Below are positions 14,812 to 26,753 of a stretch of 34,590 nt of DNA, in pieces. The DNA is from Gammaproteobacteria bacterium. GTDB lineage: Bacteria; Pseudomonadota; Gammaproteobacteria; JAUZRS01. A program made the position numbers and the translations under genes. Location: positions 1 to 34,590 of the forward strand of contig JAUZRS010000031.1 of NCBI GenBank assembly GCA_030950195.1, in the 5' to 3' direction. Below the pieces are notes generated by a model. The model ran no database searches, was not told where the DNA came from, and worked only from the letters and a program-made list of their open reading frames with translations. Position 1 is the first letter of the stretch, and the number at the start of each line of letters is the position of its first letter.

Positions 14812-14896
<85 letters not shown>

Positions 14897-14932
14897 AAAG
14901 TGAAATGTACCGCACAAACAAATCTTCAACAT

Positions 14933-14960
14933 AAAAAAGCCCGGCACTGCCGGGCTTTTT
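14933..14960. terminator. Terminator inside the tRNA cluster
   Basis: GCCCGGC-ACT-GCCGGGC forms a perfect 7-bp stem. A runs on one side and T runs on the other let it work on both strands; on the minus strand six T follow the stem. It is fused directly to a truncated tRNA and lies between tRNA-His and tRNA-Leu, so it should end the Pro-Arg-His transcript before Leu. Confidence 0.8.
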
Positions 14961-14984
14961 CTCTACCAGCTGAGCTAACAGCCC
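14961..14984 (-). pseudogene. 5' fragment of a tRNA, probably tRNA-Lys
   Basis: The minus strand reads GGGCTGTTAGCTCAGCTGG followed by TAGAG: a 7-nt acceptor strand, the conserved TAGC linker and a full D-arm. It then stops and runs into the A tract of the terminator hairpin. Anticodon and T arms and an ACAGCCC acceptor partner are missing. The 5' strand matches gammaproteobacterial tRNA-Lys best. The cluster has Pro-Arg-His-[fragment]-Leu, so it fills a tRNA position. Confidence 0.75.
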
Positions 14985-14992
14985 GCAAATTT

Positions 14993-15069
14993 TGGGGTGA
15001 ACGATGGGGCTCGAACCCACGACCACCGGAATCACAATCCGGGGCTCTACCAACTGAGCTACGCTCACC
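14993..15069 (-). tRNA. tRNA-His (GTG)
   Basis: A 77-nt cloverleaf including the extra 5' G-1 typical of tRNA-His and an encoded CCA. The acceptor is GGTGAGCG / CGTTCACC, the D-arm AGCTCAGTTGGTAGAGC, the anticodon loop TTGTGAT (GTG) and the T-arm GTGGGTTCGAGCCCCAT. Confidence 0.97.
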
Positions 15070-15085
15070 ATAAAACGGTCAAACA

Positions 15086-15162
15086 TGGTACGCCCGGCAG
15101 GGTTCGAACCTGCTACCCTCGGCTTAGAAGGCCGATGCTCTATCCAGATGAGCTACGGGCGC
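15086..15162 (-). tRNA. tRNA-Arg (TCT)
   Basis: A 77-nt cloverleaf with CCA. The acceptor is GCGCCCG / CGGGCGT, the D-arm AGCTCATCTGGATAGAGC, the anticodon loop CTTCTAA (TCT) and the T-arm GCAGGTTCGAACCCTGC. It lies 16 nt upstream of tRNA-His. Confidence 0.97.
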
Positions 15163-15197
15163 AGAAACGGAACAAAATCCGTGCATACTATAAAAAA

Positions 15198-15274
15198 TGG
15201 TCGGGGCAGAGGGAATCGAACCCCCGACCCTCTGCTCCCAAAGCAGATGCGCTACCAGGCTGCGCTATGCCCCG
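15198..15274 (-). tRNA. tRNA-Pro (TGG)
   Basis: A 77-nt cloverleaf with CCA. The acceptor is CGGGGCA / TGCCCCG with the bacterial tRNA-Pro C1, the D-arm AGCGCAGCCTGGTAGCGC, the anticodon loop TTTGGGA (TGG) and the T-arm GGGGGTTCGATTCCCTC. It is the first gene of the cluster, about 49 nt after the promoter -10. Confidence 0.97.
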
Positions 15275-15449: not shown

Positions 15450-15479
15450 ATGACAACACTACACCGCTGGAATATCTAA
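15450..15479 (+). CDS. Possible 9-residue leader peptide before the channel gene
   Basis: ATG at 15450 opens a frame encoding MTTLHRWNI and ends with TAA at 15477. AAAGG stands 5 nt before the ATG. The stop lies 5 nt before the channel ATG, which itself has no recognisable Shine-Dalgarno sequence. This arrangement suggests translational coupling by ribosome re-initiation. A chance short frame cannot be excluded. Confidence 0.35.
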   Translation: MTTLHRWNI

Positions 15480-15484
15480 CAGAC

Positions 15485-16573
15485 ATGTTCACTTGGCTGT
15501 TTCACCTGCTGCACCGTAAATCGGAACCTGACCAACATCAGATGGCCAGCGCCCTGTTTCGTACCGCTGGCTACCTAAGCCTCATCATTCTGCTGCACAG
15601 CGCGGCGATGATTCAATTTGAACAACTCTCCCTCGGCGATGCCCTCTGGCTCAGCCTCACCAGCATCACCACCGTCGGTTACGGCGACCTCTATGCCCAG
15701 ACCTTTTGGGGACGCAGCGCCACCGCACTGTTAATCTACTTGGGTGGGATTTTTGTGCTGGCCAAAACCGCCGGTGACTATTTTGACTACCGAGCCGAAA
15801 AACGCCGCCGTCAACTGCGAGGCGAATGGATCTGGAATATGCACAACCACATTTTGATTATTAACACTCCGGCTGCACACGGCGCGCAGTACTTCAAACG
15901 CCTGATCGAGCAGTTTCAAAGCAGCGTTTTTGCCCGGCTGCCAATTCAACTTCTCAGCCGCGAATTTGGACAGGGGCTGCCGAACAGCATCAAGCAGATC
16001 GAACAGCTGACACACTACCACGGCAGCGCCACCCATCCCGCCAGTTTACAGGCGGTCAATGCTCAGCACGCCAAACTGATTGTGGTACTGGCCAAAACCG
16101 AAAACGACAGCCTATCCGACAGCCGCACCTTTGACATATTACATCGGCTGCGCGAAACCGGCACCCAAGCCAACGTGTTAGCTGAATGCGTCGATGATCA
16201 AAACCGAGCGCGGCTACAAAAGGCAGGAGCCGATATTGTCATTCGCCCCATGCGCGCCTATCCTGGCATGATCGTGCGCAGTTTTGCTGCTCCCGGTTCA
16301 GAGCAGATCATCGAAAACATGTTCAATTCCAGCAGCGATCAGTACCACCGTTTTGACATTCAGCTCGACCACCTCAGCTGGTCCGAGATCGTCTGCCGCT
16401 TGATGCAACACGACATCGGTACAGCGGTTGCGTACGTTGATATCAATGGCACAATGCACTGCAACCCCTCAGCTCACAGCCCCATCGAATGCTCGGCTCT
16501 GTTATTGATGATGCGTGAAAACCACAGCACCGACCTGACACAGCTCACCCACCTTTTAAAGGTTGCTCCATGA
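15485..16573 (+). CDS. Two-TM potassium-type ion channel with a divergent RCK-like domain
   Basis: A 362-residue predicted inner-membrane ion channel. A membrane helix at about 28-45 is followed by a pore helix and the K+ selectivity filter TVGYGD (63-68), then a second membrane helix at about 78-97. A basic linker (RAEKRRRQLRGEW) leads to a cytoplasmic region of about 240 residues with RCK/TrkA-N-like order (HILIINTP, AKLIVVLAKTENDSLSDSRT, ECVDDQNRARLQKAGADIVI). The glycine-rich GxGxxG nucleotide loop of classic RCK domains is absent; NTPAAHG stands there instead. It heads a five-gene operon and overlaps the next gene by 4 nt. Gating ligand unknown. Confidence 0.85.
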   Translation: MFTWLFHLLHRKSEPDQHQMASALFRTAGYLSLIILLHSAAMIQFEQLSLGDALWLSLTSITTVGYGDLYAQTFWGRSATALLIYLGGIFVLAKTAGDYFDYRAEKRRRQLRGEWIWNMHNHILIINTPAAHGAQYFKRLIEQFQSSVFARLPIQLLSREFGQGLPNSIKQIEQLTHYHGSATHPASLQAVNAQHAKLIVVLAKTENDSLSDSRTFDILHRLRETGTQANVLAECVDDQNRARLQKAGADIVIRPMRAYPGMIVRSFAAPGSEQIIENMFNSSSDQYHRFDIQLDHLSWSEIVCRLMQHDIGTAVAYVDINGTMHCNPSAHSPIECSALLLMMRENHSTDLTQLTHLLKVAP

Positions 16574-17583
16574 TTAAAAAACAGACCATGCCCAAATACG
16601 GCAGCTCTGCCCTATCTCTTTTCTTACTGATGTTACTGTTATTTCTGCTCAGCGGTTGCTCCAATGAGTACGCCGAAGACCTTCAAAAACGCCACAGTTT
16701 TGTTGGATCTCAACTCAACTCACTGGCAAACAAACTCGATCAAGGCAGACTCAGCAACGCCTTGCTAATCAAACACTACGCGAAAAAACTGCGCCAACAA
16801 AAACCCGAGCTGGACGAGATCATCGGCCAACTGGAAAAAGACGCAACCAGCCGCGGCCCCAATTTCCAAAGCCTGAAACAGCGTCTTTCCGCACTCAAAC
16901 TAAACCCTGACAACAAAAGCCAATATCTGCCCGCCGCTCAAGAGCTGGATGCCCTCACCGCTGCCAGCGACCCACTGATCTACAACGACTCTCTGCAAGA
17001 TGTGGTCAATACGCTGGCCGATCTCTCCAGCGGCACTCTGCCTCGGGTCAATGTTCCCAAACAAGCCACCAGCAACACCGTCGCTGGCAGCCCGCTGGTG
17101 GGCAACCCCAACTACGGCAGTTGGGTCTCTAATAGCAATGGCGGCGGCTTCTGGCAGTGGTACGGTCAATACCGCCTGCTCAGCGATGTGGTGGGCCTGT
17201 TCGGCTCACGACAAAGAATCGGTTATGATAATTGGAACCGTAGCCGTCATAACAGCTACTATAATGATTGGGGGCGTGGCGCTTACGGTACCGCCGGAGA
17301 TCGCCAACGCTGGGATCGTGGTCAACAACAGCTGGCCAACAAGGGAATTAAAACGCCGAAAGCAAAACGTTACGGCAGTGTCAACAGTCAACAACGGATC
17401 AGCACCTACAGCAGCATGCAAAAACGCAACAGCCGCATTCGTAAATCCACCACAGGGCCGGTCTCACTCAGCGGCAAGCCCAGTTCGGGTAACAGTTCAA
17501 GCAGCACAAAACGCACGTCCTCTTTTTTCGGTGCCAGCACACGCGGAAGCTCCAGCTCTCGCAGTCGTTTTGGTGGCAAGTGA
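16570..17583 (+). CDS. Lipoprotein of unknown function in the channel/DUF350 operon
   Basis: A 337-residue protein I do not recognise as a named family. It has a hydrophobic signal with lipobox FLLSGC, giving a lipidated Cys30. A helical, charged region covers about 31-135, probably coiled-coil. A Gly/Asn/Tyr/Trp-rich segment follows (GNPNYGSW, GGGFWQWYGQYRL, SRHNSYYNDWGRG). The tail from about 260 is basic and serine-rich, ending SSRSRFGGK. DUF350 proteins are often encoded beside such lipoproteins, for example yjfM next to yjfL in E. coli. It starts inside the channel stop (ATGA) after AAAGG; ATG at residue 7 is an alternative. It is probably envelope-anchored and works with the DUF350 protein. 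Confidence 0.75.
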   Translation: MIKKQTMPKYGSSALSLFLLMLLLFLLSGCSNEYAEDLQKRHSFVGSQLNSLANKLDQGRLSNALLIKHYAKKLRQQKPELDEIIGQLEKDATSRGPNFQSLKQRLSALKLNPDNKSQYLPAAQELDALTAASDPLIYNDSLQDVVNTLADLSSGTLPRVNVPKQATSNTVAGSPLVGNPNYGSWVSNSNGGGFWQWYGQYRLLSDVVGLFGSRQRIGYDNWNRSRHNSYYNDWGRGAYGTAGDRQRWDRGQQQLANKGIKTPKAKRYGSVNSQQRISTYSSMQKRNSRIRKSTTGPVSLSGKPSSGNSSSSTKRTSSFFGASTRGSSSSRSRFGGK

Positions 17584-17605
17584 GATCTCTCAGGGAGTTA
17601 AGATC

Positions 17606-18496
17606 ATGAATTACGTTGTTCTACACGATGCCTCATTCCTCTACTACTTTATCGACCTCGTCATTGTTTTGATGGTGCTTGCTGGGATCCGGTTTTTCTC
17701 CGGCACACTGGCCAGTAGCTCACTGACCGACACCGTCTCTAAAGAAGACAACTTCGCTATGGGCATCTCGATGGCAGGCGCGCTGATCGGCGTTTCGATT
17801 ATGCTTATGGGTGCGGTGGCCGGTGAAGCGGGCGTTGATCTGATCCATGAAGTCATCCTCATGTTCAGCTACGGTTTTGCTGGTCTGGCGCTGATGTGGC
17901 TCACTCATCAGGTGTTTGACTACATATCGCTACCCGAGATCTCAGTCAAAGAACAGCTGCACAAAGACAACGTCGCCGTCGGTCTGGTGGATGCAGGCAA
18001 TATGATCGCCACCGCAATTATTCTGCGCGCCCTGATGTCCTGGGTCGAAGGCAGTAGCCTAATTGGTTTAATCGCCCTATTGGGCGGCTACATCGCCTCA
18101 CAGATCATTCTCTATCTCGCCACCCGCTACCGTGCCACCGTCTTCTCACGTCACTACCCAGGTCGCACCCTGGCACAAGAGATTGCCGACGGTAACCTCG
18201 CTCTGGCGGTGCGTTTCACCGGTCATCGCATCGGGGTCGCCTTGGCGGTCACCGCCAGCTCTGGCATCGTGGTCTACAACGCCGGTGACTTGACCACCTC
18301 ACTGCTGGCATGGAGCGGCATCGCTCTGCTGATGTTTTTGATCCAAACCATCGTCTCTCTGGTGGCGCGTTTTATTATTCTACCGGGGATCAACATCTCC
18401 GAAGAGGTGGTGGATCAGCGCAACGTCGCCATCGGCGCATTGGAAGCGGCCATCTACATTGCCGTTGGGCTGATCTTTGTGGGGTTATTTGGTTAA
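17606..18496 (+). CDS. Double-length DUF350 (YjfL-like) membrane protein
   Basis: A 296-residue integral membrane protein made of two DUF350 units. E. coli YjfL, a single unit, is about 130 residues. Four related segments can be seen: DNFAMGISMAGALIGVSIML, DNVAVGLVDAGNMIATAIIL, NLALAVRFTGHRIGVALAV and RNVAIGALEAAIYIAVGLIF, each a polar N-[FVL]-A start followed by a membrane helix with a small or polar middle. I count eight to nine membrane helices. The start ATG 17606 has CAGGGAG 8 nt before it; a longer frame beginning near 17000 overlaps the lipoprotein and is not the gene. It lies 22 nt after the lipoprotein. The molecular function of DUF350 is unknown. Confidence 0.85.
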   Translation: MNYVVLHDASFLYYFIDLVIVLMVLAGIRFFSGTLASSSLTDTVSKEDNFAMGISMAGALIGVSIMLMGAVAGEAGVDLIHEVILMFSYGFAGLALMWLTHQVFDYISLPEISVKEQLHKDNVAVGLVDAGNMIATAIILRALMSWVEGSSLIGLIALLGGYIASQIILYLATRYRATVFSRHYPGRTLAQEIADGNLALAVRFTGHRIGVALAVTASSGIVVYNAGDLTTSLLAWSGIALLMFLIQTIVSLVARFIILPGINISEEVVDQRNVAIGALEAAIYIAVGLIFVGLFG

Positions 18497-18512
18497 CGGG
18501 GAGCACACCGTT

Positions 18513-19946
18513 ATGGGGCAAGAGATCGACGTTAGCCATTTCAGTGACGCAGATTTTGCCCGTTTTGAGCAACAACTCAAAACGGAAACAGAACAGCTTC
18601 AAGGTTGGTTCAAAGAGGGCGCACTGGCCAACCAGCCGCTCAAAATCGGCTTCGAGCTGGAAGCGTGGCTGCTGGACAACGAACTCGCCCCCGCCGCCAT
18701 CAACGACACCTTTATCCAGCAGCTCAACAACCCCAACATCACCCCTGAGTTGGCGCGGTTTAACATCGAAATCAACAGCCAACCGCTGCCGTTGACACAA
18801 AATAGCCTCTCCCAACTGGAGCAGCAATTAGAGCACCGCTGGCAGCAGTGCCACCAACAGGCACGGCGCATGAACGCCCACCTGCTGATGAGCGGCACCC
18901 TGCCCAACCTGCAACGGTCTGATCTCAACCCGCGCAACATGTCGAGCCTAAAACGCTACCACGCCCTCAATGAACAGGTCTTTCACGCTCGGGCAGAACA
19001 ACCCTTACAGATCGACATTCAAGGTCACGAACGGCTGCAAACTCAGCAGAGCAACGTCATGCTCGAAGCGGCCACCACCTCCTTTCAAACCCACCTGCAA
19101 GTGCCACTGACCCAAGCCCATCGCTATTACAACGCCTCTATTATTGCCTCAGCGCCCTTGGTGGCCGCCTGTGCCAATTCGCCGTATCTGTTTGGCAAAC
19201 AGCTCTGGCATGAGACCCGTATTCCGCTGTTTGAACAAGCGATCAATGTCGGTGGTTACGCCGATGCCGCCCACGGCCCTCTGCATCGGGTCGGCTTTGG
19301 TTCCGGTTTTGCCTACCACTCCTTGATGGAGTGTTTCACTGAAAATCAGCAGCACTTCCCCGTGCTGCTGCCCTTGAATCTCGAAGACGACCCGCAGCCG
19401 CTGCCGCACCTGCGGCTGCACAACGGCACCCTCTGGCGCTGGAATCGCCCTCTGCTCGGTTTTGATCAACAGGGCGTTCCTCATCTGCGCATCGAACAGC
19501 GCATTCTGCCCAGCGGCCCGAGCCTCTGCGACAACATCGCCAACGCGGCTTTTTATTACGGCCTGACTCACTACCTCAGCCAGCACGAGACTCTGCCCGA
19601 AAGCCAGCTTGAATTTGCCCGCTGCCGCGATAATTTTTACCACGCGGCGCGCAACGGCCTACAGACACAGGTGGTTTGGCTCGATGGCCAGCACCATAAT
19701 CTGCGCCGCCTGATTTTGGATGAACTGCTGCCGCTGGCACGCCAAGGGCTGTTTGATCTCAACCTCCATCAGCGCGACATCAGCCACTACTTGGGCATCA
19801 TCGAAGCGCGGGTGGAAAACCAGCAGACCGGTGCCGTCTGGCAACAAAACTACGTTCAACGTCATGGCCGCGACATGCAGCGTCTGACCCGCGCCTGCCT
19901 GTCACGGCAAAACCAAGCCAAACCCGTTCATCTCTGGAGTCTCTAA
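18513..19946 (+). CDS. Carboxylate-amine ligase of the glutamate-cysteine ligase 2 type
   Basis: A 477-residue predicted cytoplasmic enzyme of the GCS2/COG2170-like ATP-dependent ligases. The N-terminal substrate motif is KIGFELEAWLLD (about 44-55), with Glu48 and Glu50 as likely metal or substrate ligands, followed by FNIEINSQP. Later come LEAATTSFQTHLQV, HGPLHRVGFGSGF and a C-terminal helical part. Family members join glutamate to cysteine or to other amines; the substrate here cannot be read from sequence. ATG 18513 with GGGGAG 9 nt upstream is the start. It lies 16 nt after the DUF350 gene and 25 nt before a zinc deacylase gene, which could reverse or process its product. Confidence 0.75.
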   Translation: MGQEIDVSHFSDADFARFEQQLKTETEQLQGWFKEGALANQPLKIGFELEAWLLDNELAPAAINDTFIQQLNNPNITPELARFNIEINSQPLPLTQNSLSQLEQQLEHRWQQCHQQARRMNAHLLMSGTLPNLQRSDLNPRNMSSLKRYHALNEQVFHARAEQPLQIDIQGHERLQTQQSNVMLEAATTSFQTHLQVPLTQAHRYYNASIIASAPLVAACANSPYLFGKQLWHETRIPLFEQAINVGGYADAAHGPLHRVGFGSGFAYHSLMECFTENQQHFPVLLPLNLEDDPQPLPHLRLHNGTLWRWNRPLLGFDQQGVPHLRIEQRILPSGPSLCDNIANAAFYYGLTHYLSQHETLPESQLEFARCRDNFYHAARNGLQTQVVWLDGQHHNLRRLILDELLPLARQGLFDLNLHQRDISHYLGIIEARVENQQTGAVWQQNYVQRHGRDMQRLTRACLSRQNQAKPVHLWSL

Positions 19947-19971
19947 ACCACACCATGAACAGATCATCACC

Positions 19972-20991
19972 ATGTTAAAAGAGTGGCACCACCTCCCCAA
20001 AGGCTTCGAGCAAAGTTCCGCCAAAACGCTGTTGGGCTTGCTCGGCGGCTCGGCTCTGATTCATCTTGAGGGCGAAAAACCCGAGCGCCTGTTTGTCTCG
20101 ATTTTACTCCACGGCAACGAGGACAGCGGTCTGCTGGCGATGCAGTACCTGCTGCAAAAATACCGCTCTAAAAAATTGCCGCGCGCTCTGACCCTGTTTG
20201 TTGGCAATGTGCTGGCCGCTCACAAAGGTCTGCGTCGCCTACCCGATCAGCCCGATTACAACCGCTGCTGGCTGGGCAGCGAAGAGCCAGAGTGCGAAGA
20301 GACCCGCATGATGCAGAAGGTCTATGAGCGCATGGAGGAGGAGCGTCTGTTTGCCAGCGTCGATCTGCACAACAACACCGGCCTCAATCCGCACTACGCC
20401 TGCATCAATGTGCTGGAACAGCCCTTTTTTCAATTGGCGACGCTGTTTTCACGCACGGTGGTCTATTTCACTCGCCCTCGCGGGGTGCAGTCGCAGGCTT
20501 TTTCCCAGCTCTGTCCCGCCGTGACGCTGGAGTGCGGACGTGTCGGCCAGCAACACGGCATCCAACACGCCTTTGAGTTTCTCGATGCTTGCCTTCACAT
20601 GGATCACATCGCCCAACACGACGTGGCAGCGCACGACATGGATCTGTTTCACACCGTGGCGCAGGTCAAAATGGCTCCGCAGGTGGCGTTCAGTTTTAGC
20701 GCCGCCGACACCGCCGAGTTGCACCTCTCGCCGCAACTGGATCACCTTAATTTTCAGGAGCTGCCCGCTGGGAGCGTGTTTGGTCAGGTCTCAACGGAGC
20801 TGAAACAACCGCTGCTGGCCTACGATGAGAAGGGCAATGAAATCAGTGCGCGTTACTTTAAAATTGAAAATGGGCAACTGAAACTGAAACGCGCCGTGAT
20901 GCCGTCCATGTTGACCCTGAATGAAAAGGTGATTCGGCAAGATTGTTTTTGTTATTTGATGGAACGACTGGATTACAGCACAAAGGGCTAG
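19972..20991 (+). CDS. AstE/AspA-type zinc-dependent deacylase (M14-like)
   Basis: A 339-residue predicted zinc hydrolase of the succinylglutamate desuccinylase/aspartoacylase family. The zinc ligands are visible: His47 and Glu50 in LLHGNEDSG and His133 in DLHNNTG. The catalytic Glu is probably Glu187 in TLECGR. DYNRCW (95-100) matches the substrate-carboxylate Asn-Arg motif. A C-terminal beta-domain follows after about 230. The family cleaves N-acyl or amide bonds of small amino-acid derivatives. It is the last gene of the channel/DUF350 operon, and no clear terminator is seen before the IS. Its own Shine-Dalgarno sequence is weak, which suggests coupling. Confidence 0.82.
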   Translation: MLKEWHHLPKGFEQSSAKTLLGLLGGSALIHLEGEKPERLFVSILLHGNEDSGLLAMQYLLQKYRSKKLPRALTLFVGNVLAAHKGLRRLPDQPDYNRCWLGSEEPECEETRMMQKVYERMEEERLFASVDLHNNTGLNPHYACINVLEQPFFQLATLFSRTVVYFTRPRGVQSQAFSQLCPAVTLECGRVGQQHGIQHAFEFLDACLHMDHIAQHDVAAHDMDLFHTVAQVKMAPQVAFSFSAADTAELHLSPQLDHLNFQELPAGSVFGQVSTELKQPLLAYDEKGNEISARYFKIENGQLKLKRAVMPSMLTLNEKVIRQDCFCYLMERLDYSTKG

Positions 20992-21225: not shown

Positions 21226-21533
21226 ATGACTGTTCAAACCCGCTCCACATTCACTCCCGAGTTCCGTTTAGAAGCGGCTCAACTGGTGACAGAACAAGGC
21301 TACACCATCAAAGCCGCTGCTACGGCCATGAACGTCGGTAAATCAACGATGGACAAATGGGTCAGACAGCTCAAAGCAGAACACAATGGGGTCGTGGGTA
21401 AAGCCACTCCCTTGACACCCGATCAACGTAAAATCAGAGAGCTTGAGAAGCGAATCAAACGCATTGAGATGGAGAAAGAGATCCTAAAAAAGGCTACCGC
21501 TCTCTTAATGTCCGATTCGATGCGAGGTGTTCG

Positions 21534-21537
<4 letters not shown>
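21226..21537 (+). CDS. IS3-family transposase OrfA
   Basis: A 103-residue DNA-binding protein. Residues about 8-55 form the HTH_Tnp_1 helix-turn-helix ([36 protein letters not shown]), and about 68-92 form the leucine-zipper-like coiled coil ([22 protein letters not shown]). A slippery heptamer A-AAA-AAG at 21486-21492 is in the correct frame for the programmed -1 shift that makes OrfAB in IS3 elements, and the -1 frame stays open into orfB. It overlaps orfB by 4 nt. The gene itself looks intact. Confidence 0.92.
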
Positions 21538-22264
<727 letters not shown>

Positions 22265-23903: not shown

Positions 23904-26753
23904 TTAACGACTCTGCAATACAAACTCATCCATCACTTCATGCAAATAGTTGTACGCCACCACCTTAAGCTCATCGCCCTGCACCTGCACATGGACAAAG
24001 CCCCAACGTTTTTCAGGCGCTTTGGGTTCATCATTGCCTTTAGTGGCGTTATCAAACAAAACCGGCTGACCGTCGGCACGCCGAGCAATAAAGTCATAAC
24101 CAATGCCCCACTTACGTTTCTGCTCCAACCACAACTCGCTTTCATACTCGCTCGGTTGTGTGGAACGGTTGTGCAGATCCGCACCGCCGTTGCCGATGCC
24201 GATGTAGGTGATGCCCTCTTGAGTATCAATTTTACCGCCCGAGGTACGCATGATCTGGCCATTGGCATCAAACTTCAGCGGCTGCGTGCGCTGGTACATG
24301 TGATCATGGCCAAAAAGAACAAACTGCACTCCCAATGTTTGCAAACGGGGGAATAATTTCTGTCGCATACGTCGATTTTCGCTGCGATCCCCATAGGTGC
24401 CGTGGGGCCCGAACGAAAGCGGCGAATGATGAAACAAAACCAATTTCCACGGCTGTTGACTCGCTTTCAGATCCGCTTCCATCCACGCTAACATCTGTGG
24501 CAGACGCGCCCGCTCACTGTTTTTGCTGGCAAACTTCATCGAATCCAGCACCACAAAATGCACCGGCCCTGAATCAAAACTGAAATAACGTTCCCGATCC
24601 GCCTCTGGCATACCGGTGGAGCTAGGATAGGCAAACGAGGCCAGATACCCCTTGGGCAGATTCTGCTCTTTATTAGCGTATTCATGATTGCCCAGAGAAC
24701 TGAAAAAAGGCCGGTGCATTAAAATGCCACGTTCTGGCTGCTTTTTACCCTTACCGCTGAGTTGATCAAAAAACTTTTGCTCAAACTGCTTGTAGCTGCC
24801 ACTGGAATAGGCAATGTCCCCCACCCCAATGCTAAAGTCATGCGGGTATTTCCAGATGCCATTCTCACGGCTGGAGATGGCATCACGCACCTTGCGCGGC
24901 TGACTGTATTTGGTACCCGAATCACCAAAAGCGATAAAATTAACCGTTTTACTGCTCGCATCGGGCAAGGTCTTAAAAGAGACCGCACTGGCCAACAACA
25001 GACCGTTGTGCAGCAAGTCAAAACGGTATTCCGTATCCGGATCCAGATCAAACAGCTGCACCAGGTGCTGCTCAAAATCGTGCTTTAGGGACGTTTCCTC
25101 TTTGGCAAAATGCTGCTGACGAGAGGGGAAATCTTGCCAAGTGGTTTCGCCTTTTTTCCAGAGACGCAACAGACCGTGACCGGCAGCGTAACTGCCCCAG
25201 AGAATCTTTACCTCCGTGGCCGACTGCGCTTGCAAGTAGGGGTAACGAAACAGAATGCCTTTGGCCTCCTTACGCGGCATCACCTCTTTTTGTTGGCTAG
25301 GCTGCAACTCGCCAATTCGATGCTCTCGTTCATGCGCCCCCAGATCCGGGTGTTGCCGATCAAAGCGCGACACCCCCGAAAAATCGGTCAACAGGCCGTC
25401 CATACCCTCCGCACCTTCCAGCGCAGGGCTGTCTTGCTTCAGTTTCAATACGTTCAAATCCGCAAACAACGGGTCTTTGATCTCACTGTTTAAATCAAAG
25501 CCGGTTTTCTGCTGCCAACGTTTTAGGGAGACCTTCTCTAAACCCTGCTGCTCCCAATTGAAACGGATTTTTGCACCTTTATCTGTCCAATAAAGATTGT
25601 TATCCAGCTCTAAGGTTTTCGGATCGACCAAAGCGTTGCTGGAGATTTTCACCGCTGGGCGGCCTTTTGCCGAGGAGACATGCACAATGTTATTTTTGAT
25701 TGTGATGTTCTCACCCGCTTGTCCCACCTCCGACTCATTGGAGAGAAAAATCGCCCCATGTGCCCGGGTTGAGGCGTTGTAACAACTGTTGTTGTAAATC
25801 AACACCCCAGAAGAAGAGGCGCTGGCCAGACACGCCTCACCTGTGTTGATAATGACGTTGTTACGAATGATGCCATCGTAACTCTCAAACTTGCCGTCCC
25901 GCAGACGCTCTTTGTCCGTGGACTGACCCAGCATAATGCCGCGTTCGTAAATGTTACGCAGCACATTGCCCTCAAACAGCGTATCGCGGGCGTTGCCCTT
26001 GGCGTACAGACCGATGGAGGGGATGTCATGCACAACATTACGCGCCACCCAAGTACGATCTGCACCCACGATGTCCACACCCTGCGCGTTGGCACCGAGC
26101 TTGGCATCAGGGGAATAGATCTCATTTTCGTAGATCACCACATCGTCAGCGGTGTGTACCAGCTTGACGATGTCGCGCTTGGAGCCGTGCAGTTTGTTAC
26201 GGATCAAATGCACAAACGGCGTGTCGATCTTCACCACATAATGCTTGCCGCCCACCACCTCCAGACCCTCCACACTCCAGTACATCGGCTTGAAGTCGTC
26301 GTTGTAAAAATAGAGGGCTTGTGTGCGTCCCTGCGCTTCGATAACCACCGATTCATTGCCAAAAGCACGCAAATTGATCCACGCATCGGCGCGACCTGGG
26401 CGTTTGATGCTCACCCCTTTGTAACGACCTTCGCGCAAAAAGATCGTCTCGCCTGGCAGCACTCGTGACACCGCTTCTTTGAGGCTGCGCAAGGGGGTTT
26501 GCAACGTGCGCCCCTCGTTGTCATCGTCACCCTTAGGTGAAACGTAATACCGGCGAGGCTGCGGTGTTTTAATCCTTCCCAACGACGGCGAGACCTGCAA
26601 AGGAGACTGCTCTTTGGCAACCGCCGCCTCGCTGACCAACGGCGCAAGCGGCGGCAACTCACCACAGGCAACAAGAGACAACGACAGCGACATCCACATC
26701 AACCGCACCCATTGAAACGTGCTCCGACCTACTCTCAATCCGCCCATTCGCAT
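23904..26753 (-). CDS. Lipoprotein with beta-helix and purple-acid-phosphatase-like domains
   Basis: A 949-residue exported protein. The signal ends in LVAC (Cys30, lipobox). Residues about 68-475 form a right-handed parallel beta-helix of the pectate-lyase/NosD type: YYVSPKGDDDNEG, LREGRYKGVSI and many NNVI/NNIV turns. Residues about 495-597 look like the Fn3-type N-domain of purple acid phosphatases. Residues about 604-860 hold the metallophosphatase motifs: Asp611 (GDSG), Asp646/Tyr649 (GDIAY), Asn689-His690 (GNHE), His775/776 and GHDHMYQR (815-822), including the metal-charge-transfer Tyr. GAGGAAG precedes ATG 26753. It is divergent from a polysaccharide operon, so it may bind glycans and remove phosphate outside the cell. 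Confidence 0.85.
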   Translation of the reverse strand: MRMGGLRVGRSTFQWVRLMWMSLSLSLVACGELPPLAPLVSEAAVAKEQSPLQVSPSLGRIKTPQPRRYYVSPKGDDDNEGRTLQTPLRSLKEAVSRVLPGETIFLREGRYKGVSIKRPGRADAWINLRAFGNESVVIEAQGRTQALYFYNDDFKPMYWSVEGLEVVGGKHYVVKIDTPFVHLIRNKLHGSKRDIVKLVHTADDVVIYENEIYSPDAKLGANAQGVDIVGADRTWVARNVVHDIPSIGLYAKGNARDTLFEGNVLRNIYERGIMLGQSTDKERLRDGKFESYDGIIRNNVIINTGEACLASASSSGVLIYNNSCYNASTRAHGAIFLSNESEVGQAGENITIKNNIVHVSSAKGRPAVKISSNALVDPKTLELDNNLYWTDKGAKIRFNWEQQGLEKVSLKRWQQKTGFDLNSEIKDPLFADLNVLKLKQDSPALEGAEGMDGLLTDFSGVSRFDRQHPDLGAHEREHRIGELQPSQQKEVMPRKEAKGILFRYPYLQAQSATEVKILWGSYAAGHGLLRLWKKGETTWQDFPSRQQHFAKEETSLKHDFEQHLVQLFDLDPDTEYRFDLLHNGLLLASAVSFKTLPDASSKTVNFIAFGDSGTKYSQPRKVRDAISSRENGIWKYPHDFSIGVGDIAYSSGSYKQFEQKFFDQLSGKGKKQPERGILMHRPFFSSLGNHEYANKEQNLPKGYLASFAYPSSTGMPEADRERYFSFDSGPVHFVVLDSMKFASKNSERARLPQMLAWMEADLKASQQPWKLVLFHHSPLSFGPHGTYGDRSENRRMRQKLFPRLQTLGVQFVLFGHDHMYQRTQPLKFDANGQIMRTSGGKIDTQEGITYIGIGNGGADLHNRSTQPSEYESELWLEQKRKWGIGYDFIARRADGQPVLFDNATKGNDEPKAPEKRWGFVHVQVQGDELKVVAYNYLHEVMDEFVLQSR

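What the first reader, a model, noticed from the sequence alone, without database searches (positions are those of the whole stretch)
15450..20991. Five-gene operon joining an ion channel, a double DUF350 protein, a GCS2-type ligase and an AstE-type deacylase
Seen: five same-strand genes with gaps of -4, 22, 16 and 25 nt. Known: GCS2-type enzymes form amide bonds on amino acids, and AstE/AspA enzymes hydrolyse amide bonds of small amino-acid derivatives; DUF350 proteins recur with lipoproteins and, in the E. coli yjf operon, with a glutathionylspermidine synthase-like protein. Inferred: the operon makes and removes a small gamma-glutamyl or similar metabolite that gates the K+-type channel or the DUF350 complex, by analogy with glutathione-gated KefB/KefC. 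I know of no described system with this set.
Basis: partly seen in the sequence, partly recalled or inferred. Interest (0 to 1): 0.78.

Follow-up and report, generated by a model that had tools for sequence, protein, structure and literature searches.

The report
Ligase–hydrolase pair beside envelope genes
The five genes are real and intact, but they are two separate gene sets that happen to sit together in one bacterial genus: a piece of a published envelope-stress operon, and a widespread, apparently uncharacterised pair of enzymes that makes and cuts an amide bond.

Summary
Confirmed: five intact same-strand genes at 15485-20991, gaps -4/22/16/25, also in the only other held genome of the genus. 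In 274 class genomes the ligase (GCS) occurs in 102 and the deacylase (AST) in 100, 98 shared; across 180 GCS loci AST lies within 300 nt downstream in 151 of 174, and the two are fused in at least two genomes. The channel, lipoprotein and double-DUF350 genes lie beside GCS only in this genus. Elsewhere they belong to a PspA-DUF2170-spermine-synthase operon, close to ones already published (PMC11237479), and show no co-occurrence with GCS (4 shared of 102 and 12). The unit is therefore two modules. GCS is a YbdK/GCL-fold amide ligase with its catalytic motif intact; AST is an AstE/AspA-fold zinc hydrolase with its active site intact. They most likely act on one small amide or one pathway. It is probably not glutathione: the genome has its own GshA. 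The only recurrent neighbour is murU (74 of 165), hinting at cell-wall recycling but not proving it. Substrate unknown. The conserved pair is the real find; the five-gene system is not.

The parts
15485..16573 (+). Module B: K+ channel, 2 TM with TVGYGD filter and cytoplasmic RCK/TrkA-N-like domain lacking the dinucleotide glycine motif
   Evidence: Pfam; family alignment; adjacent to lipoprotein/DUF350 genes in other genera
16570..17583 (+). Module B: lipoprotein (lipobox LLSGC), conserved N-terminal domain, W..WYG.Y motif and Ser/Gly/Arg-rich tail ending in GK
   Evidence: sequence; always next to the DUF350 gene in 12 genomes
17606..18496 (+). Module B: double-DUF350 (YjfL-type) membrane protein
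   Evidence: PF03994 165 bits; same double form in PspA operons
18513..19946 (+). Module A: GCS, uncharacterised GCS2/YbdK-fold carboxylate-amine ligase, GFELE motif 46-50, E328/R330
   Evidence: model pLDDT 93 and PDB fold match to YbdK 1r8g
19972..20991 (+). Module A: AST, AstE/AspA-fold zinc amidohydrolase; H47, E50, H133 metal ligands, E187 base, R88 and N97-R98 (assignments by motif)
   Evidence: model pLDDT 96 and PDB fold match to AstE/AspA

Best explanation
Two functionally separate modules were joined into one probable transcription unit in this genus. Module A (GCS-AST) is a conserved enzyme pair: GCS uses ATP to activate a carboxylate, probably a glutamyl gamma-carboxylate, and joins it to an amine; AST, a zinc amidohydrolase, hydrolyses an amide whose amine half carries a free carboxylate. 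The most likely arrangement is that both act on the same small amide or on consecutive steps of one non-glutathione pathway. Module B (channel, lipoprotein, double DUF350) is the membrane part of a PspA/DUF2170/polyamine-linked envelope-stress operon, whose DUF2170-PspA part sits on another contig of this genome. Shown: gene content, catalytic-residue conservation, pair conservation, separateness of the modules. Inferred: co-transcription, the chemistry, the small-molecule substrate, and the absence of a functional tie between A and B.
For: GCS in 102 and AST in 100 of 274 class genomes, 98 shared; AST within 300 nt downstream in 151/174 loci, CH/LP/D350 beside GCS only in the own genus; fused GCS-AST ORFs of 816 and 825 aa with different linkers; both enzymes kept when unlinked (G020, G239). 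Catalytic residues invariant and confident folds. Module B in 10 genomes outside the genus, in eight of them with PspA/DUF2170/spermine-synthase-operon partners; DUF2170-PspA and a third partner on contig C86 of the own genome. LP-DUF350 against GCS: 4 shared, odds ratio 0.84, p = 1.
Against: No substrate identified, so 'same amide' is inferred from pairing and fusion. Tight spacing in two species (gaps -4/22/16-18/25) could mean a genus-specific functional link between A and B. Neighbour searches used profiles built from the window's channel, lipoprotein and DUF350, so remote versions could be missed.
Confidence: 0.68

Rival explanations
1. One reading: GCS makes and AST removes a small gamma-glutamyl-type metabolite that gates the channel or DUF350 complex.
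For: Five tightly spaced genes kept intact in both genomes of the genus; the channel has a cytoplasmic RCK-type domain.
Against: 178 of 180 GCS loci lack these genes nearby; no co-occurrence of the modules; 8 genomes carry the LP-DUF350 module with no GCS; the channel is not a KefB/C-type antiporter and lacks the nucleotide motif.
Confidence: 0.06
2. GCS and AST act in sequence in one biosynthetic route: AST deacylates a precursor, freeing the amine that GCS then couples; not a write/erase pair.
For: Nearly perfect co-occurrence and fusion fit a two-step pathway as well as an antagonistic pair; AstE/AspA-fold enzymes typically unmask N-acyl amino acids (fold matches; general knowledge).
Against: None specific.
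Confidence: 0.35
3. The pair serves peptidoglycan recycling, e.g. making or cutting a gamma-D-Glu-amino acid bond of muropeptides, next to amgK-murU.
For: murU within 300 nt upstream, same strand, in 74/165 loci; amgK within 2.5 kb in 50/154; no other recurrent upstream neighbour; GCS-fold enzymes make gamma-glutamyl bonds (known biochemistry).
Against: More than half of loci are not beside murU; adjacency is clustered on the tree (22 changes against 53 shuffled), which fits inherited synteny; amgK-like genes occur in 242/274 genomes whether or not GCS is present.
Confidence: 0.15
4. GCS is the organism's glutamate-cysteine ligase for glutathione, or a spare one.
For: GCL fold.
Against: The own genome has a full GshA (PF08886, 624 bits); GCS and PF08886 occur independently across the class (45 shared, p = 0.32), and 45 genomes keep both; no curated GCL cut-off reached.
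Confidence: 0.06

Closest known systems
PspA/CesT-Tir operons with spermine-synthase or ATP-grasp, DUF350, lipoprotein and K+ channel (PMC11237479)
   Same: Channel, lipoprotein and double DUF350 here are homologous to genes that sit in PspA-DUF2170-spermine-synthase operons in eight other sampled genomes.
   Different: In the window the PspA, DUF2170 and synthase genes are absent from the locus and GCS-AST follows instead; no Spermine_synth match in the genome. The paper's spermine-synthase group does not list a channel; several operons here have one.
YbdK / GCS2 carboxylate-amine ligases
   Same: Fold (1r8g TMt 0.82), GhExE motif, E..R motif.
   Different: 13% structural-alignment identity; 30 bits against a 425-bit YbdK cut-off; fixed hydrolase partner.
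AstE / AspA deacylases
   Same: Fold and HxxE...DxNR...H...E signature.
   Different: 14-17% identity in the fold alignments; 18 bits against a 180-bit aspartoacylase cut-off; no arginine-catabolism context seen at this locus; partner ligase.
KefB/KefC glutathione-gated K+ efflux
   Same: Membrane K+ pathway with a cytoplasmic RCK/KTN-type domain.
   Different: 2TM pore channel, no antiporter domain, glycine motif lost.

Membership tests
GCS2 family (PF04107) | Reaches the Pfam gathering score | tested here: met
   27.1 bits against 21
YbdK / glutamate-cysteine ligase (NCBIfam) | Reaches an equivalog or subfamily cut-off | tested here: not met
   30.4 of 425, 23.3 of 176.4 and 20.6 of 332 bits
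GCS2 / GS-fold ligases | GhExE metal/ATP motif conserved | tested here: met
   G46, E48, E50 invariant in 47 homologues; motif described in PMC2588565
Glutamate-cysteine ligase (function) | Makes gamma-glutamylcysteine | not testable with these tools
   Indirect: a separate GshA is present
AstE_AspA_cat (PF24827) | Gathering score and HxxE...H...E site | tested here: met
   44.8 bits against 25; H47, E50, H133, E187 invariant in 43 homologues
Aspartoacylase / succinylglutamate desuccinylase equivalog | NCBIfam equivalog cut-off | tested here: not met
   18.1 of 180 bits for aspartoacylase; no AstE model hit
KefB/KefC system | Antiporter domain plus nucleotide-binding KTN domain | tested here: not met
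   Only 2TM Ion_trans_2; glycine motif absent
PspA-CesT-DUF350 operon (PMC11237479) | PspA and DUF2170 in the same operon | tested here: not met
   Absent from the locus; present on contig C86
PspA-CesT-DUF350 operon (PMC11237479) | Channel, lipoprotein and DUF350 homologous to those of such operons | tested here: met

The most novel reading that the evidence does not exclude
GCS-AST is an undescribed, widespread proteobacterial amide-bond make-and-break cycle, independent of glutathione, that builds and removes a new gamma-glutamyl-type compound, possibly in cell-wall recycling beside AmgK-MurU.
Probability: 0.3. Interest if true: 0.7.

Novelty: new variant of a known kind. Interest (0 to 1): 0.42.

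Why it matters
A ligase and a hydrolase of known folds but unassigned substrates are kept together in about a third of the sampled genomes of the class, even when their genes are apart, and are sometimes one protein. That points to an unrecognised metabolite or modification cycle in many chemolithotrophic and methane-oxidising bacteria, and to a wrong 'glutamate-cysteine ligase' label. It also shows that the five-gene 'channel-metabolite system' should not be pursued as one unit.

Tried and rejected
KefB/C analogy: rejected on domain architecture. Glutathione ligase: rejected as the primary role. Five-gene system: rejected on distribution. AmgK co-occurrence as evidence: uninformative because AmgK-like genes are in 242/274 genomes. 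PDB sequence search with the single proteins found nothing; profiles and folds did. Pfam scan of upstream genes where murU is absent gave no second recurrent partner. Viral contigs: no GCS relative. Mirror-tree correlation GCS-AST 0.745 against GCS-amgK 0.702 and GCS-murU 0.681: too weak a contrast to count. Channel genes between GCS and AST in two genomes of one family (L043, L054) have a longer N-terminal membrane region, show no RCK domain by eye and lie on the opposite strand: judged coincidental. Paper searches found no description of the GCS-AST pair; only open-licence papers are held, and the 2009 amidoligase survey could not be read.

Full report
OBSERVATION. Pfam supports Ion_trans_2 plus RCK-like domains, DUF350, GCS2 (weak, 27 bits) and AstE_AspA_cat; the lipoprotein matches no Pfam family. 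The only other held genome of the genus has the same five intact genes with gaps -4, 22, 18, 25 and 93.5% DNA identity.

TWO MODULES. Across 274 genomes of the class, GCS is found in 102, AST (strong matches) in 100, and 98 genomes have both (odds ratio about 2000, p about 1e-66). These p-values ignore shared ancestry, but the pair is also kept in genomes where the two genes lie far apart or on different contigs (for example G020 and G239). The DUF350 and lipoprotein proteins are in 12 genomes, always together; four of these have GCS, as expected by chance (p = 1), and in the two outside the genus (G053, G239) the modules lie on different contigs. Over 180 GCS loci (100 from the class survey, 80 from the genome-contig scan, with some overlap of organisms possible), AST lies within 300 nt downstream in 151 of 174 with enough sequence, while channel/lipoprotein/DUF350 homologues lie near GCS only in the two genomes of this genus.

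MODULE B. In eight of the ten other genomes with the lipoprotein-DUF350 pair, it lies in operons with PspA, DUF2170 (CesT/Tir-like), a spermine-synthase protein with an N-terminal extension, and two conserved small proteins (not every member in every genome); the channel is in the same locus in six of the ten. Such PspA-CesT/Tir operons with spermine synthase or ATP-grasp, DUF350, lipoprotein and, in one group, a K+ channel are described in PMC11237479. The own genome carries DUF2170, PspA (63% identical) and the 213-aa partner (40%) on another contig and no Spermine_synth gene. So the window holds a detached part of that operon type. The channel keeps the K+ filter TVGYGD but has INTPAAHG where an RCK/KTN domain would have the dinucleotide glycine motif, and the motif is missing throughout its family.

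MODULE A, GCS. G46, E48, E50 (the GhExE signature), E86, E185, Q192, H194, R312, E328 and R330 are among the invariant residues. The predicted structure (pLDDT 93) matches YbdK (1r8g, TM 0.82 by target length) and then plant and yeast glutamate-cysteine ligases. It falls far below every NCBIfam cut-off for YbdK or GCL, so it is a separate subfamily.

MODULE A, AST. H47, E50, H133, E187, R88 and N97-R98 are invariant, matching by motif the zinc ligands, catalytic glutamate and carboxylate-binding residues known from AspA/AstE (family knowledge; partial alignment). The model (pLDDT 96) matches AstE, AspA, aminoacylase-3, DoeB and CphZ, enzymes that hydrolyse amides of small amino-acid derivatives (family knowledge). 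From this I infer a product or substrate with a free carboxylate on the amine side; this is not shown.

HOW IT MAY WORK. Fused GCS-AST open frames of 816 aa (L103) and 825 aa (L141) with different linkers argue that the enzymes work in one place on one compound or pathway. Glutathione is unlikely: the genome has a full-length GshA of the PF08886 type, and GCS and PF08886 occur independently across the class (45 shared, p = 0.32). Whether AST undoes the GCS product (write/erase) or prepares its substrate (sequence) cannot be decided from sequence.

NEIGHBOURS OF THE PAIR. murU lies within 300 nt upstream on the same strand in 74 of 165 loci and amgK within 2.5 kb in 50 of 154. No other recurrent neighbour was found where murU is absent. 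The murU link is clustered on the GCS tree (22 changes against about 53 for shuffled labels), so inherited synteny explains much of it. AmgK-like genes are nearly universal, so co-occurrence gives no further support. Cell-wall recycling is a lead, not a conclusion.

LIMITS. No biochemical evidence exists here for any substrate. Co-transcription of the five genes is inferred from spacing; the terminator and promoter scan is not informative.

Noticed in passing
window 21226-22264: IS3-type insertion sequence just downstream of AST: HTH_Tnp_1 orfA and an orfB broken into two frames (21534-21968 and 21968-22264).
   Followed up: partly
L043:8741-9724 and L054:6276-7247: In two genomes of one family a K+ channel gene with a longer N-terminal membrane region and no obvious RCK domain lies on the opposite strand between GCS and AST.
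   Followed up: partly
L234 (own genome contig C86:1-3316): DUF2170-PspA-213-aa-type gene trio, the rest of the envelope operon type, on a separate short contig.
   Followed up: yes
L220, L221, L224: Spermine-synthase type PspA operons that also carry the K+ channel; the published description lists a channel only for the ATP-grasp type.
   Followed up: partly
window 14812-15274: Four tRNA genes (Leu, His, Arg, Pro) on the minus strand stand between the tig-clpP-clpX-lon side and the operon start.
   Followed up: no
window 23904-26753: 949-aa protein joining a right-handed beta-helix region to a calcineurin-like phosphoesterase domain, minus strand.
   Followed up: no
G093 (L229) and G213 (L228): Two related genomes have AST but no GCS match, exceptions that could show what AST does alone.
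   Followed up: no
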